Below, in pieces: positions 54,547-60,045 of a stretch of 64,000 bases of DNA. The translations under genes were made by a program, and so were the position numbers. Position 1 is the first letter of the stretch. Every line of letters begins with the position of its first letter. The stretch spans positions 62,001 through 126,000 of the forward strand of contig NZ_FOAP01000019.1 of NCBI RefSeq assembly GCF_900109545.1, given 5' to 3'. The notes under the pieces were generated by a model, which did not search any database, was not told where the DNA came from, and saw only the letters and a list, made by a program, of their open reading frames with translations. Origin of the DNA: Stigmatella aurantiaca (GTDB lineage Bacteria; Myxococcota; Myxococcia; Myxococcales; Myxococcaceae).

Positions 54547-57045
54547 CTACTTCCCCGGCCAGCTCAACGCGCCGCGGCTCGTCACCGTGCCTGCGGCCAC
54601 ACCGAGCGCCTGCGCCACATCCGCGGGCAGCGGTTTGCCGCTCTGGTACGCCGGGCTGGAACTCCGCACGGTGTAGTCGTGGAGCGCCTGGTTCACGAAG
54701 AAGGGATCGCCCCCCGTCGCGATGTCATGGCCGTGGCTCTCCCAGCCATGGGTGGTCTTGAGCGCGGAGAGCGACGTGTAGTTCGCGCCGCCAGTGTCCA
54801 CCCAGTTGACCAGCGACTTCCCACTGCCACCGGAGCGGTAATAGCTGTTGTAGTCGAGGCCCGAGAAGAAGGTGTTGGGACCCGTGTTGGTCGAGTTGTT
54901 GTCGGAGCGGGAGGCCTTGAAGGTGGTGATGTTTCCGCCCGACAGGATGTTGTTCGACACGTCGACGTTCGCGGTGTCCGGGCCAATGTCCGAGCCCCGC
55001 TTGTCGGCCTCGTTGCGCGCGTCGTCGTAGATCCAGATGTTGATGGCCGCGTTGTTGACGAGCGTGTTGTTGTAGATCTTCGTGTTCGAGGAGCAGGACT
55101 GGATGCCGGCGTAGGTGTTGCCGTAGATGAGGTTGGACGCGATGATCCCGGTGTCCGAGACCTCGTAGAAGATGCCGATCTTGTTGTTGCGGGAGATGTT
55201 GTAGACCATCACGCCGCCGCGGCAGTCCTCGTCACACCAGAACCCCGCGCCACCGAGGTTGTTCTCGAAGACGTTGTGGCGCACCGTGAAGCCATTCATG
55301 TGCGCGATCTTTACGCCGGCCTGAGCGCAGGAGCGGGAGCAATTCGTGCCGAAGCGCTCCGTGTTGTTGGCGTTGACGATGTTCTCCTCGAGCAGCAGGC
55401 CGTCGTAGCCGGGCGTGGAGGAGTTGGTCTGGCCGTTCGAGCCGATGGCGGTGAAGCCGTTGTTCGCGAAGACGGAGCGCCGCACCACGCCCCCCTGGGG
55501 CTTGATGCTGAGCGAGCCGGCCGCCATCTGGGTGAAGACGCAGTTCTCGATCAACGAATGGGTCGCGCCGATGTAGACGGCCGCGTTCGTGGTGTTGCTG
55601 TACTCGTTCGTCGCGTAGCGACGGAAGCCAATGCCCTTCACTGCGTAGCCCGTGCCGCCAAGGACGAGGGCGACGGGGCGCGCGGCCACCTCCACGGTGT
55701 GGCCGCTCGGGTTGGTCGCGATGAAGAGGCGGCGGTGGGTCCAGTCATAGAAGAAGTTGCCCGGGGTGGCCTCCGCGAGCGTCTTCACCTCGTGCACGTA
55801 CGTCCCGTCGATGAAGACCATCTGTGGGTCGCCCGCGGCGGGGTTGGCCGGGTCGCCGTACATGTCGAAGTGACTGCAGGGGCCCTGGTTCGTGGTGGGC
55901 TGGGCGTCGTATTTGTAGGTGTAGTAGCCGCCGTTGCAGAAGCTGGGCGTGCTCCAGTCCATGTACCAGTGACCGAGCCCATCGCTGGTCCAGCTGGAGG
56001 CCGGCTTCACGTCCGTGCCGTCGAACCACACTTGCTCGTGCGGGTAGGCCTGGAGGGTCAACGGCTTGGTTGCGACCTTGTAGTTGCCCGCGCCGTTGTT
56101 GTACCAGTCCCGGTAAACCCCTCCGCGCACCACGATTGTCCCGCTCGAGGGCACGAGGGCGATCGCGCGGTTGAGCGTCGCCACGGGCGAGGCCTGGGTG
56201 CCCGGGTTGCTGTCATTGCCATTGGCGGCCATGAAGATGGCGCCGCTCGGGATGGGGTAGTTGGTGTCGGGGAGGGTCTTGCCCGAGTTGTCGAGTCCGC
56301 TGAGGCCCGGGATGCCCGGCTCCGCGGTGTAGGTCACCGTCAGTTGAGGACGGTTGGCGAGGATGGCGGCCTCGGAAGAGTCGAACTCCAGACCGTCCAT
56401 GTTGGTGAGGGCATCCAGCACGAAGCCGTTGTTGTTGCCCGCGTTCTCCACCCAGGCCTGGATGGCCGCGACTCCCGCGGCGTTGAGGTCCACGCTGTAC
56501 TTGCCCGTCACCCCCGGGAGGAGCGTCGCGAAGGACGCCGTGCCCCGGTCCGAAGCGCCTCTGGCGCCGCCCGCGCTCCAAGCGCTGCCGCTCGTCGCGT
56601 TCGTCCAGGTGGCCTGGGACTCATTCCAGGCACGGCTCGCGGCGTAGATGAAGTAGCCCTCGCCCGTCGTGGCGTTCTTGACGTTGATCGTCAGCTGGGC
56701 CGACTGCACCGTCGCGCCCACGGGGATGGCGCTGACGTCGAAGCGCAGCAGGCCGTTGGTGCTCTTCCCCGTGCCGGTGGGGGAGTCCCGGTCCATGCGC
56801 ACCAGGGGGTCGGCCCCGGCGTTAACGGAGGGGGTGCTCTCCTGGAGCGAGGTGTCGGATGCGCCGGTATAGGCGGCCGAGGGCGAGACCTGTTCCTGGA
56901 AGGACACGGTGAGGGAGGTGGCGAGGGCACGGTCTACCGCCGTGAAGGCCTCGGAGGAGGGTTCGCCTCCGCAGGCCAGGGACAGCATCACGGGCAGGAG
57001 GACCAGGGCATGGCGCCCATTCCGCTGGGGGGCGTAGAGGATCAT
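54547..57045 (-). CDS. DNRLRE-domain and parallel beta-helix lipoprotein
   Basis: 832 residues. The signal peptide ends in the lipobox LSLAC. Residues about 45-240 form a DNRLRE-like beta-sandwich (TNGLLRFDVSAIPVGATVQSAQL, RPQLTVTYT). From about 275 the protein is a right-handed parallel beta-helix of the DUF1565/pectate-lyase-like type (GNDSNPGTQASPVATLNRAI, then Asn-rich turns such as NTLVNNAAINIWIYDD). Such proteins bind or cut polysaccharides. The fold is recognised, but catalytic residues cannot be assigned. No good ribosome site is seen before 57045. Confidence 0.8.
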   Translation of the reverse strand: MILYAPQRNGRHALVLLPVMLSLACGGEPSSEAFTAVDRALATSLTVSFQEQVSPSAAYTGASDTSLQESTPSVNAGADPLVRMDRDSPTGTGKSTNGLLRFDVSAIPVGATVQSAQLTINVKNATTGEGYFIYAASRAWNESQATWTNATSGSAWSAGGARGASDRGTASFATLLPGVTGKYSVDLNAAGVAAIQAWVENAGNNNGFVLDALTNMDGLEFDSSEAAILANRPQLTVTYTAEPGIPGLSGLDNSGKTLPDTNYPIPSGAIFMAANGNDSNPGTQASPVATLNRAIALVPSSGTIVVRGGVYRDWYNNGAGNYKVATKPLTLQAYPHEQVWFDGTDVKPASSWTSDGLGHWYMDWSTPSFCNGGYYTYKYDAQPTTNQGPCSHFDMYGDPANPAAGDPQMVFIDGTYVHEVKTLAEATPGNFFYDWTHRRLFIATNPSGHTVEVAARPVALVLGGTGYAVKGIGFRRYATNEYSNTTNAAVYIGATHSLIENCVFTQMAAGSLSIKPQGGVVRRSVFANNGFTAIGSNGQTNSSTPGYDGLLLEENIVNANNTERFGTNCSRSCAQAGVKIAHMNGFTVRHNVFENNLGGAGFWCDEDCRGGVMVYNISRNNKIGIFYEVSDTGIIASNLIYGNTYAGIQSCSSNTKIYNNTLVNNAAINIWIYDDARNEADKRGSDIGPDTANVDVSNNILSGGNITTFKASRSDNNSTNTGPNTFFSGLDYNSYYRSGGSGKSLVNWVDTGGANYTSLSALKTTHGWESHGHDIATGGDPFFVNQALHDYTVRSSSPAYQSGKPLPADVAQALGVAAGTVTSRGALSWPGK

Positions 57046-57244: not shown

Positions 57245-59242
57245 TCAGGAGTCTTCGCTGACGATGGGAGCCAGCACTTCGATGAGGGTCTCCATCTCCC
57301 AATCGACCGCGAACGCGGCCGCGTGCATCCGCGCGGGGTCCCGCTTGTTGCTGGTGAGCAACCCCTTGGCGCGGCGGAGGGCCGCCGCAAGCGCGTGGGC
57401 ATCGAGCAACCGGATCGCCCCCGCGAGCCCCCGCCAGAGGCGCTCGTACTCGTCGCGAGCGCCCGACGTGAGCGCGGACCGGAGCGCGGGCCTCGCCTGC
57501 TCGAGTTCCAGGAGGGTGAGGCGGGCCAGCGCCACGCGCGCTTGCGGATCATTCCCCGCGCGCGTCCCGAGCCGGGTCAGGCTGTAGTCGGGCGGCAGGG
57601 CGACGGCGCTCTCGTCAGTCTCCGGGGGCCGGCGGACGGGGGCCGGGGGGCGCTTCGCCGCGTTCGGAACGTCTCTCGAGGTGTACAGCGCGATCCTGCG
57701 CCACAGCATGTCCGCATCGAAGGGCTTGCCGATGAAGTCGGTGAAGCCCGAGTCCTTGATGCGGCTCTCCTGCCATGCGCGTGCGGAGGCCGAGAGGGCG
57801 ATGACCGGGAGCTGGCGAAGCCGCTCGTCCGGGAGCGCCCGGATGGCCTTCAGCGCATCGTATCCATCGAGCTCTGGCATGTGCAGATCCATGAGCACGA
57901 GCGCGTAGTTGCCCTTCTGAACCTGCTCCACCGCCTGCTTTCCGTTTCCGACGGTGTCGAACACCACGCCCCAGCGCTCGAGCCAGCGGGAGAGTACGTA
58001 GGTATTGATCTCGCTGTCCTCGACCACGAGCACACGCAGCCCACTCAGCACAGGCTCGGGTGCGGCGGCCGGGGGCGCCTTGCCGGGGGCGCGCGTGCCG
58101 GCCTTCAAGCGCAAGTCGAAGGCGAAGCGGCTCCCCACCCCCACCTCGCTCGTAACAGTCATCTTGCTGCCGTGCAGTTCGAGCAGCTTGCGGCTGATGG
58201 AGAGGCCCAGGCCGGTGCCTCCGTACCGCATCCCGATGTCGTAGTTCGCCTGGGTGTACTCCTCGAAGATGGCGGTGATGCGATCTGGAGAGATGCCGAT
58301 CCCGGTGTCGATCACCTGGAAGTTCACGCTGCACTCATCCCCCTGCAGTGAGCGGACAGTGGCCACGACCCGGACCGAGCCCTTCTCCGTGAACTTGAGC
58401 GCGTTGCTCACGAGGTTCGTGAGGATCTGGCCGATCTTGACCGGATCGCCGAGGAGGCTGGCTGGCAGCCTCTCGTCGACGTCCACCAGGAGCTGGAGCT
58501 TCTTCTCCTCGGCCCGGGCCGCCAGGCCGTTCACGAGGCCGCTGATCAGCTCACGCGGATCGAACTCGCGCTGTTCCAGCGAGAGCTTGCCCGCCTCGAT
58601 CTTGCTCCAATCGAGGATGTCGTTGACCAACGCGAGCAGGTTGCCCGAGGACGAGCCGAGAATGTGCACGTACTTCGACTGCTTGTCGGAGAGCCCCGTC
58701 ATTCCCAGCAGCCGGGTGGCCGCGGTGATGGCGTTGAGGGGGTTGCGGATCTCATGGCTGAGCGTCGACAGGAGGGTGGCCTTGGCCTGGGCCATCTGCT
58801 CAGCCTTCCTGCGGGCCTGGAGCAGCTCGCGCTCGTAGAGCTTGCGCTCCGTCAGGTTGAAGAGGGTCGCCCGAATGGAGCGGGGCTTACCCGCCGCGTC
58901 CTTCTTCTGCATGGCGTTGATCAGGACAGGGAGAGGGCGGCCATCCGAGCAGACGACATCCAGCGAGAGCTCACGGACAAACCCCTGCATCTGCAGGAGC
59001 GGCGCGTAGTGGGTCTCGTGGTAGATGCGGCCGGCGGCCGAGAGCAGCTCGTAGAACCGCTTGCGGCCGATCAGCTCGTCTCGCTGATAGCCGGTCCAGG
59101 TCAGCAGGGTCTGGTTGACCTTGACGATAAGCCCGTCAAGGCGCGTCGAGAGGTAGCCGCATGGAGCATTCTCGTAGAGATCCTCCGCGGACTCTTCGAA
59201 GGGGCCCTCCTCGGGCTCGGCGCTCGTATCGTCCTCGTGCAC
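57245..59242 (-). CDS. PAS hybrid histidine kinase with receiver and degenerate Hpt-like tail
   Basis: 665 residues from GTG 59242, 8 nt after the hydrolase stop. Order: PAS (20-130; YENAPCGYLSTRLDGLIVKVN), HisKA with H163 in LSHEIRNPLNAI, HATPase (265-380; IDTGIGISPD, GGTGLGLSIS), receiver (403-515; D452 in LMDLHMPELDG, K506), then a helical tail (about 545-665) placed like an Hpt domain but without the usual AHxLKG histidine. No membrane helix. It is coupled to an RsbQ-like hydrolase, so a small molecule produced or bound by that protein is its likely PAS signal. Confidence 0.88.
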   Translation of the reverse strand: MHEDDTSAEPEEGPFEESAEDLYENAPCGYLSTRLDGLIVKVNQTLLTWTGYQRDELIGRKRFYELLSAAGRIYHETHYAPLLQMQGFVRELSLDVVCSDGRPLPVLINAMQKKDAAGKPRSIRATLFNLTERKLYERELLQARRKAEQMAQAKATLLSTLSHEIRNPLNAITAATRLLGMTGLSDKQSKYVHILGSSSGNLLALVNDILDWSKIEAGKLSLEQREFDPRELISGLVNGLAARAEEKKLQLLVDVDERLPASLLGDPVKIGQILTNLVSNALKFTEKGSVRVVATVRSLQGDECSVNFQVIDTGIGISPDRITAIFEEYTQANYDIGMRYGGTGLGLSISRKLLELHGSKMTVTSEVGVGSRFAFDLRLKAGTRAPGKAPPAAAPEPVLSGLRVLVVEDSEINTYVLSRWLERWGVVFDTVGNGKQAVEQVQKGNYALVLMDLHMPELDGYDALKAIRALPDERLRQLPVIALSASARAWQESRIKDSGFTDFIGKPFDADMLWRRIALYTSRDVPNAAKRPPAPVRRPPETDESAVALPPDYSLTRLGTRAGNDPQARVALARLTLLELEQARPALRSALTSGARDEYERLWRGLAGAIRLLDAHALAAALRRAKGLLTSNKRDPARMHAAAFAVDWEMETLIEVLAPIVSEDS

Positions 59243-59250
59243 CGAAGCGC

Positions 59251-60045
59251 TCAGACGCTCAAGAACGCCTTCATCGCGGCGATGGTCTCCCGGGGGGCGC
59301 TCAGGTTCGGGCAGTGCCCGGTCGCCTTCATGAGCACCAGCTTGCTGCCAGCCAGTTGCCGGTGCACGTACTCGCCCACCACAGTCGCCGCGATGGGATC
59401 GTTCGAGCACTGGAGCACCAGAGAAGGCGTCTTGACCTTCGGTAGATCAGCCCGGTTATCGGAGAGAAAGGTAACGTGTGCGAAGTGCTTGGCGATGTCG
59501 GGATGCGTGCGGCAGAAGCTGCTGGTGAGCTCTTCTCCGAGTTCGGGCCGATCCGGGTTGCCCATGATCACGGGCGCCATCGTGCTGGACCAGCCCAGGT
59601 AGTTGTCGTCGAGCGACTCCAGCAGATGCTCGATGTCCCTCCGCGAGAAGCCGCCGACATACTCGCCATCGTTGATGTAACAGGGAGACGGTCCGATGAG
59701 CACGAGCTTGTCGAAGCGCTCCGGCTCCTTCACGGCTGCCAGCACCCCGATCATCGCGCTCACGGAATGGCCGACGAACACCACCCGCTCGAGACACAGC
59801 TCACGGCAGATCTCCAGCACGTCCTCGGCGTAGCCCGCCAGGGTCCCATACTTCGTGCGGTCGTAGGCGGAGATGTCCGCCCCGCCAGCCCCCACGTGAT
59901 CGAACAGGACGGTGCGGTAGTCGCTCTCGAAGGCGGGGGCGACGAACCGCCACATGTTTTGATCGCACCCGAAGCCATGCGCGAAGAGCATCGGCTGCGC
60001 GCTCGTGCCCGTCACCTTGACATTGTTCCTGGCGAGAACGCTCAT
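59251..60045 (-). CDS. RsbQ-like alpha/beta hydrolase
   Basis: 264 residues from ATG 60045 with GGAGAGG 4 nt upstream. It is very like Bacillus RsbQ through its whole length: FAHGFGCDQNMWR near the N-terminus, catalytic S94 in VGHSVSAMIG, IGPSPCYINDGEY, DNYLGWSSTMAP, D216 in LQCSNDPIA and H244 in GHCPNLS. RsbQ acts with the PAS phosphatase RsbP to signal energy stress; plant homologues D14/KAI2 bind strigolactones and karrikins. Here the partner is a PAS histidine kinase encoded 8 nt downstream, so the hydrolase probably supplies or detects its ligand. Confidence 0.9.
   Translation of the reverse strand: MSVLARNNVKVTGTSAQPMLFAHGFGCDQNMWRFVAPAFESDYRTVLFDHVGAGGADISAYDRTKYGTLAGYAEDVLEICRELCLERVVFVGHSVSAMIGVLAAVKEPERFDKLVLIGPSPCYINDGEYVGGFSRRDIEHLLESLDDNYLGWSSTMAPVIMGNPDRPELGEELTSSFCRTHPDIAKHFAHVTFLSDNRADLPKVKTPSLVLQCSNDPIAATVVGEYVHRQLAGSKLVLMKATGHCPNLSAPRETIAAMKAFLSV

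What the first reader, a model, noticed from the sequence alone, without database searches (positions are those of the whole stretch)
57245..60045. RsbQ-like hydrolase coupled to a PAS hybrid kinase instead of an RsbP phosphatase
In Bacillus, RsbQ works with a PAS-PP2C phosphatase. Here an RsbQ-like protein with full catalytic triad (S94, D216, H244) is encoded 8 nt before a PAS-HisKA-HATPase-receiver protein. This suggests that the hydrolase-PAS sensing principle has been transferred to a phosphorelay, possibly sensing a small hydrophobic ligand as plant D14/KAI2 relatives do.
Basis: partly seen in the sequence, partly recalled or inferred. Interest (0 to 1): 0.62.

Follow-up and report, generated by a model that had tools for sequence, protein, structure and literature searches.

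The report
Known RsbQ–PAS module driving hybrid kinase
The two genes are a real, tightly conserved sensor pair (an RsbQ-type hydrolase plus a PAS histidine kinase), but coupling of this hydrolase–PAS module to histidine kinases, including hybrid ones, was published in 2011, so this is a new myxobacterial example of a known arrangement with one odd extra: a C-terminal phosphotransfer-like domain that has lost its histidine.

Summary
Complement(59251..60045) encodes a 264-aa RsbQ homologue (best solved relative B. subtilis RsbQ, E 3.8e-94) with S94/D216/H244. Eight nt later, complement(57245..59242) encodes a 665-aa PAS–HisKA–HATPase–REC protein. The pairing is not incidental: 74 of 80 retrieved homologues across many phyla, and all 29 checked in the family, have the same type of PAS gene directly downstream, and the window PAS carries all nine residue types that define RsbP-type PAS domains. 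It is not new in kind: Nadezhdin, Brody & Price (2011, PMC3183031) described this hydrolase–PAS module with phosphatase, diguanylate cyclase and histidine kinase outputs, three of the kinases having a receiver; eLife 2025 (PMC12143880) restates it.

New details: (1) the unannotated C-terminus (550–665) is predicted to have an HPt fold, but the phospho-accepting His is replaced (R604) in all 14 members of this orthologue group that carry it, while a second pair in the same genome keeps it; (2) relatives hold a second RsbQ-like clade without RsbP-type PAS, sitting before GAF–PAS hybrid kinases, a class III nucleotide cyclase, or membrane hybrid kinases, which I found no description of. The ligand remains unknown.

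The parts
59251..60045 (-). RsbQ-type alpha/beta hydrolase, 264 aa, triad S94/D216/H244
   Evidence: phmmer to 1wom/1wpr RsbQ 3.8e-94; triad invariant in 134 aligned relatives
57245..59242 (-). PAS hybrid histidine kinase, 665 aa, GTG start, 8 nt after the hydrolase stop
58847..59179 (-). RsbP-type PAS domain (residues 22-132)
   Evidence: Pfam PAS_9; all nine class residue types C28 L31 L67 R72 Y74 H75 H78 E91 P105; AF2 pLDDT 93.7, PAS fold by Foldseek
58766..58852 (-). long helix linking PAS to the kinase (residues 131-159), probable coiled-coil signal lever
   Evidence: AF2 helix 131-159; role inferred from RsbP
58589..58783 (-). HisKA dimerisation/phospho-acceptor domain, H163 at 58754-58756
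58103..58450 (-). HATPase_c kinase domain, N (N276), G1 (D312) and G2 (G342) boxes present
57692..58033 (-). receiver domain, D452 phospho-acceptor, E408 and K506 present
57248..57595 (-). HPt-like C-terminal domain (residues 550-665) with the phospho-accepting His replaced by R604 (57431-57433)
   Evidence: no Pfam hit; AF2 pLDDT 92.9 from 8 sequences; top six PDB matches are HPt chains, TM 0.66-0.75, prob 1.00, E 0.03-0.09; His position compared over relatives
59243..59250 (-). 8-nt intergenic gap

Best explanation
A bicistronic RsbQ-PAS sensory module controlling a cytoplasmic hybrid histidine kinase in a myxobacterium. Most likely steps: the RsbQ-type hydrolase takes a small hydrophobic ligand into its pocket (inferred from homology); it contacts the kinase's PAS domain through the conserved F-alpha helix (inferred; shown for B. 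subtilis RsbQ-RsbP by others); the resulting change in the PAS dimer passes down the continuous helix 131-159 to the HisKA dimer and sets kinase activity at H163 (inferred from the PAS-lever model); phosphate moves to D452 of the attached receiver. Because the C-terminal HPt-like domain has lost its His, onward transfer probably uses a separate HPt or regulator encoded elsewhere, with the pseudo-HPt perhaps docking on the receiver.
For: Conserved adjacency 74/80 in diverse phyla with -23..+34 nt spacing and 29/29 in the family; a second pair in the same genome, L089; nine of nine RsbP-PAS class residue types; RsbQ and PAS distances co-vary, r 0.77 over 67 pairs, partial r 0.69 given the kinase core in 27 pairs; direct RsbQ-PAS contact and F55/Y59 requirement shown in B. 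subtilis; AF2 PAS plus continuous helix; intact kinase and receiver residues.
Against: No complex of this pair was modelled (single-chain tool only), and I know of no genetic or biochemical data for a kinase-linked module (the 2011 paper says the regulatory target is known only in B. subtilis). Co-variation of distances also reflects shared descent (Q-kinase partial r 0.60). Five Hymenobacteraceae homologues with ample flank lack a neighbouring PAS gene, so a hydrolase of this clade can exist without it. Ligand and downstream target are unknown.
Confidence: 0.85

Rival explanations
1. The hydrolase is an enzyme whose product diffuses to, or is delivered into, the PAS pocket, so the PAS domain rather than the hydrolase is the sensor (Nadezhdin model 1).
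For: Triad invariant in all 134 aligned relatives; the active-site triad is needed for signalling in B. subtilis; PAS folds often bind ligands.
Against: No cofactor or ligand was found on RsbP-PAS. It is a variant of the best explanation in mechanism, not in identity, and both models need direct contact.
Confidence: 0.35
2. The two genes are neighbours by chance or co-transcribed without physical coupling.
For: No interface was tested here; other hydrolases of the superfamily occur alone.
Against: 74/80 and 29/29 conserved adjacency; flanking genes are not conserved in relatives while the pair is; class-specific PAS residues.
Confidence: 0.02
3. The C-terminal domain is not an HPt relic but an unrelated helical bundle.
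For: Foldseek E-values are only 0.03-0.09 and Pfam gives no hit; helical bundles match many things.
Against: The top six matches are all HPt chains with prob 1.00; paralogues and Bacteroidota homologues keep H and K in an HKxKM-like motif at the same place.
Confidence: 0.12

Closest known systems
RsbQ-RsbP of Bacillus subtilis
   Same: Hydrolase gene directly upstream of a gene with an N-terminal RsbP-type PAS domain; triad intact; helical linker to the output.
   Different: Output is a hybrid histidine kinase, not a PPM/SpoIIE-type phosphatase; no link to a sigma-B partner switch shown.
RsbQ-PAS modules with histidine (hybrid) kinase output (Nadezhdin, Brody & Price 2011, PMC3183031)
   Same: Same gene order, same PAS class, kinase output; three of their kinases carry a C-terminal receiver.
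   Different: A myxobacterial case with an extra HPt-like domain lacking the His; the 2011 text mentions no HPt.
Plant KAI2/D14 receptors
   Same: Same alpha/beta-hydrolase subfamily by sequence (E about 1e-60 to 1e-45), same triad.
   Different: Plant receptors signal through F-box proteins and SMXL degradation (general knowledge), not PAS kinases; ligand unknown here.
Plant pseudo-HPt AHP6 (from general knowledge; not read in a paper here)
   Same: An HPt fold that has lost its phospho-accepting His.
   Different: AHP6 is a separate protein; here the domain is fused behind a receiver.

Membership tests
RsbQ family | Closest solved relative is RsbQ, full-length alignment | tested here: met
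   1wom, residues 2-262, E 3.8e-94
RsbQ family | Ser-Asp-His triad | tested here: met
   S94, D216, H244; invariant in 134 aligned relatives
RsbQ-PAS module (Nadezhdin 2011) | RsbP-type PAS encoded directly downstream and most N-terminal in its protein | tested here: met
   8 nt gap; PAS at residues 22-132
RsbQ-PAS module (Nadezhdin 2011) | Nine class residues (Bs C10, L13, L48, Q53, F55, C56, Y59, E72, P86) by 75% consensus type | tested here: met
   C28, L31, L67, R72, Y74, H75, H78, E91, P105 by motif spacing and a 73-member alignment; the B. subtilis sequence itself was not available to align
RsbQ-PAS module (Nadezhdin 2011) | No DIT motif at the end of the PAS domain | tested here: met
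   NLT here; but DIT occurs in 3 of 73 partners and in paralogue L089, so the criterion is not absolute
RsbQ-PAS module (Nadezhdin 2011) | Direct RsbQ-PAS contact through F-alpha | not testable with these tools
   No complex modelling for two chains; only a single-chain PAS model
RsbP | PPM/SpoIIE phosphatase output | tested here: not met
   HisKA/HATPase/REC instead
Hybrid histidine kinase | H-box His, N/G boxes, receiver Asp and Lys | tested here: met
   H163, N276, D312, G342, D452, K506
Functional HPt domain | Phospho-accepting His | tested here: not met
   R604 at that position; absent in 14/14 orthologues with the domain
Functional HPt domain | Four-helix HPt fold | tested here: inconclusive
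   AF2 pLDDT 92.9; top PDB matches HPt, TM 0.66-0.75 but E 0.03-0.09
KAI2/D14 butenolide receptor | Butenolide binding and hydrolysis | not testable with these tools
   Sequence relationship only

The most novel reading that the evidence does not exclude
Myxobacteria hold a second, separate hydrolase-sensor system: an RsbQ-like clade (38-48% identical to the window protein, triad intact in 23/23) that lacks the RsbP-type PAS and works with a GAF-PAS unit instead, driving either a hybrid kinase (9 loci; an intact HPt seen in the 4 read in full) or a membrane-anchored class III nucleotide cyclase (1 locus); a sister group precedes PAS-less membrane hybrid kinases. The hydrolase would then be a portable ligand-sensing subunit not tied to one PAS class, and in the window's own group the relay has been rewired by loss of the HPt histidine.
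Probability: 0.5. Interest if true: 0.5.

Novelty: new member of a known kind. Interest (0 to 1): 0.27.

Why it matters
RsbQ is the bacterial relative of the plant karrikin and strigolactone receptors, and its natural ligand is unknown. A genome with two kinase-linked RsbQ-PAS pairs plus three further RsbQ-like genes, in bacteria with rich two-component networks, offers new places to look for that ligand. As an arrangement it confirms a module known since 2011 on a wider sample. The pseudo-HPt and the GAF-PAS-linked sister clade are the parts a specialist may not expect.

Tried and rejected
A novel transfer to kinases: rejected, published in 2011 and restated in 2025. Chance adjacency: rejected by the census. 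A natural RsbQ-PAS fusion for single-chain folding: plasmid hit H36 looked like one by its feature label, but the kinase gene starts at the end of the hydrolase match, and none was found elsewhere. B. subtilis RsbP as an alignment anchor could not be obtained, so class residues were mapped by motif spacing. GAF-PAS as a diverged RsbP-PAS: profile comparison gave only a 41-column overlap at probability 27%, so not claimed.

Full report
Observation. On the minus strand, complement(59251..60045) encodes 264 aa with S94, D216 and H244 in the expected motifs, preceded by GGAGAGGATC-ATG; after 8 nt, complement(57245..59242) encodes 665 aa from a GTG. The hydrolase matches B. subtilis RsbQ (1wom/1wpr) at E 3.8e-94 over residues 2-262, better than any plant KAI2 or D14 structure. 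Pfam gives PAS_9, HisKA, HATPase_c and Response_reg in the second protein.

Is the pairing real? In 80 homologous loci from sequenced species, 74 have a gene with the same PAS type directly downstream on the same strand; in the 73 with an assigned start the spacing is -23 to +34 nt. In the alignment of 74 partner proteins (those 73 plus the window), 73 match Pfam PAS_9, about 42 are histidine kinases, 28 SpoIIE-type phosphatases, and 22 carry receivers. The six exceptions are Bacteroidota by label: five Hymenobacteraceae loci, and one labelled Mucilaginibacter that is cut by its contig end. In 96 genomes of the window's family, 41 have an RsbQ-like protein at E<=1e-50, and all 29 loci retrieved beyond the window (61-86% identity) have the PAS match 11-71 nt after the end of the hydrolase match. 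Genes flanking the pair in the window gave no match in eleven related loci, so the two genes travel as a unit.

Is it the RsbP class of PAS? Nadezhdin et al. named nine residues distinguishing PAS domains partnered with RsbQ. By spacing, the window has C28, L31, L67, R72, Y74, H75, H78, E91 and P105, each within the published consensus type, and these positions are near-invariant or type-conserved across 73 partners. The PAS ends in NLT rather than DIT; DIT does appear in 3 of 73 partners and in the paralogue, so that criterion of the 2011 paper is not absolute on a larger sample. AF2 gives a confident PAS fold and an unbroken helix 131-159 running to HisKA. RsbQ and PAS distance matrices correlate at 0.77 (67 pairs); in 27 kinase pairs the partial correlation given the kinase core is 0.69, against 0.60 for hydrolase-kinase given PAS, a modest difference that does not by itself prove contact.

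Prior knowledge. PMC3183031 (2011) reports 45 such modules with phosphatase, histidine kinase and diguanylate cyclase outputs, three of the kinases having a C-terminal receiver, and shows RsbQ-PAS contact in B. subtilis. PMC12143880 (2025) models a 2RsbP/2RsbQ complex and restates the kinase coupling. Perception of butenolides by RsbQ is the title claim of Melville et al. 2024, seen only as a citation. The finding is therefore a new member of a known kind.

C-terminal domain. Residues 550-665 have no Pfam match, fold confidently as a helical bundle and match HPt proteins first in the PDB (top six TM 0.66-0.75, prob 1.00, E 0.03-0.09). In other myxobacterial and Bacteroidota partners the segment reads HKxKM or similar; in the window and all 13 orthologues that carry the domain the His is gone (R, Q or E), one orthologue (L022) lacks the domain, and one non-orthologue (L167) has Tyr. 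The second pair of the same genome, L089, keeps the His. The domain has been kept but its phosphotransfer residue lost, so onward signalling probably runs differently in the two copies; that it docks on the receiver is a guess. Some of the 14 rows are near-identical copies of one strain in two collections (L010 and L160), so 13 are distinct.

A sister clade. A tree of 134 hydrolases splits with 100/100 support into a PAS-partnered clade (111 rows, the window and the Bacteroidota exceptions included) and a myxobacterial clade of 23 rows with intact triads and no RsbP-type PAS. Members of the latter sit at -4 nt (ATGA overlap) before GAF-PAS-HisKA-HATPase-REC-HPt kinases (L138, L139, L142, L144) or, in L135, a membrane-GAF-PAS-class III nucleotide cyclase; others precede membrane hybrid kinases by 5-138 nt (L091 in the window's own genome, L125, L126, L128, L129, L131), and some are unpaired. 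The N-terminal GAF-PAS unit occurs in 11 of 145 genomes of the order, and in 10 of those 11 directly behind an RsbQ-like gene; a phylum-wide search of 195 genomes added none. GAF and PAS assignments there rest on weak Pfam scores, mostly below the curated cut-offs. Searches of the paper library for RsbQ with adenylate cyclase, myxobacteria or GAF found no description, which covers open-licence papers only. Positions that separate the two hydrolase clades cluster in residues 142-192 and around the catalytic site, which by known RsbQ anatomy is lid and pocket; this hints at a different ligand or partner surface and was not tested structurally.

Limits. No two-chain model, no ligand, no target regulator. 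The census used the 80 best matches to one query, so proportions of outputs are not unbiased.

Noticed in passing
L138, L139, L142, L144, L135 (related genomes): RsbQ-like genes of a sister clade overlap by 4 nt with GAF-PAS hybrid kinases that carry an intact HPt, and in L135 with a membrane GAF-PAS class III nucleotide cyclase; 10 of 11 such GAF-PAS units in the order lie behind an RsbQ-like gene.
   Followed up: partly
L091 (own genome, contig C2), L125, L126, L128, L129, L131: RsbQ-like gene followed at 5-138 nt by a membrane hybrid kinase without any detectable PAS, conserved in several genera.
   Followed up: partly
L089 (own genome, contig C14): A second RsbQ-PAS-hybrid kinase pair (hydrolase 66% identical) whose HPt-like domain keeps the His and whose PAS ends in DIT.
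   Followed up: yes
L090, L092 (own genome): Two further RsbQ-like genes (45% and 42%) with no neighbouring sensor protein.
   Followed up: partly
L023, L033, L042, L085, L087: Hymenobacteraceae RsbQ homologues of the PAS-partnered clade that have no PAS gene within the retrieved flank; they group together in the tree.
   Followed up: partly
window 57431-57433: R604 replaces the HPt histidine; the loss is shared by all 14 members of the orthologue group that carry the domain.
   Followed up: yes
window 54547-57045: Secreted-looking 832-aa protein with a DNRLRE/CBM96 domain and a right-handed beta-helix, on the same strand about 200 nt downstream of the kinase gene.
   Followed up: no
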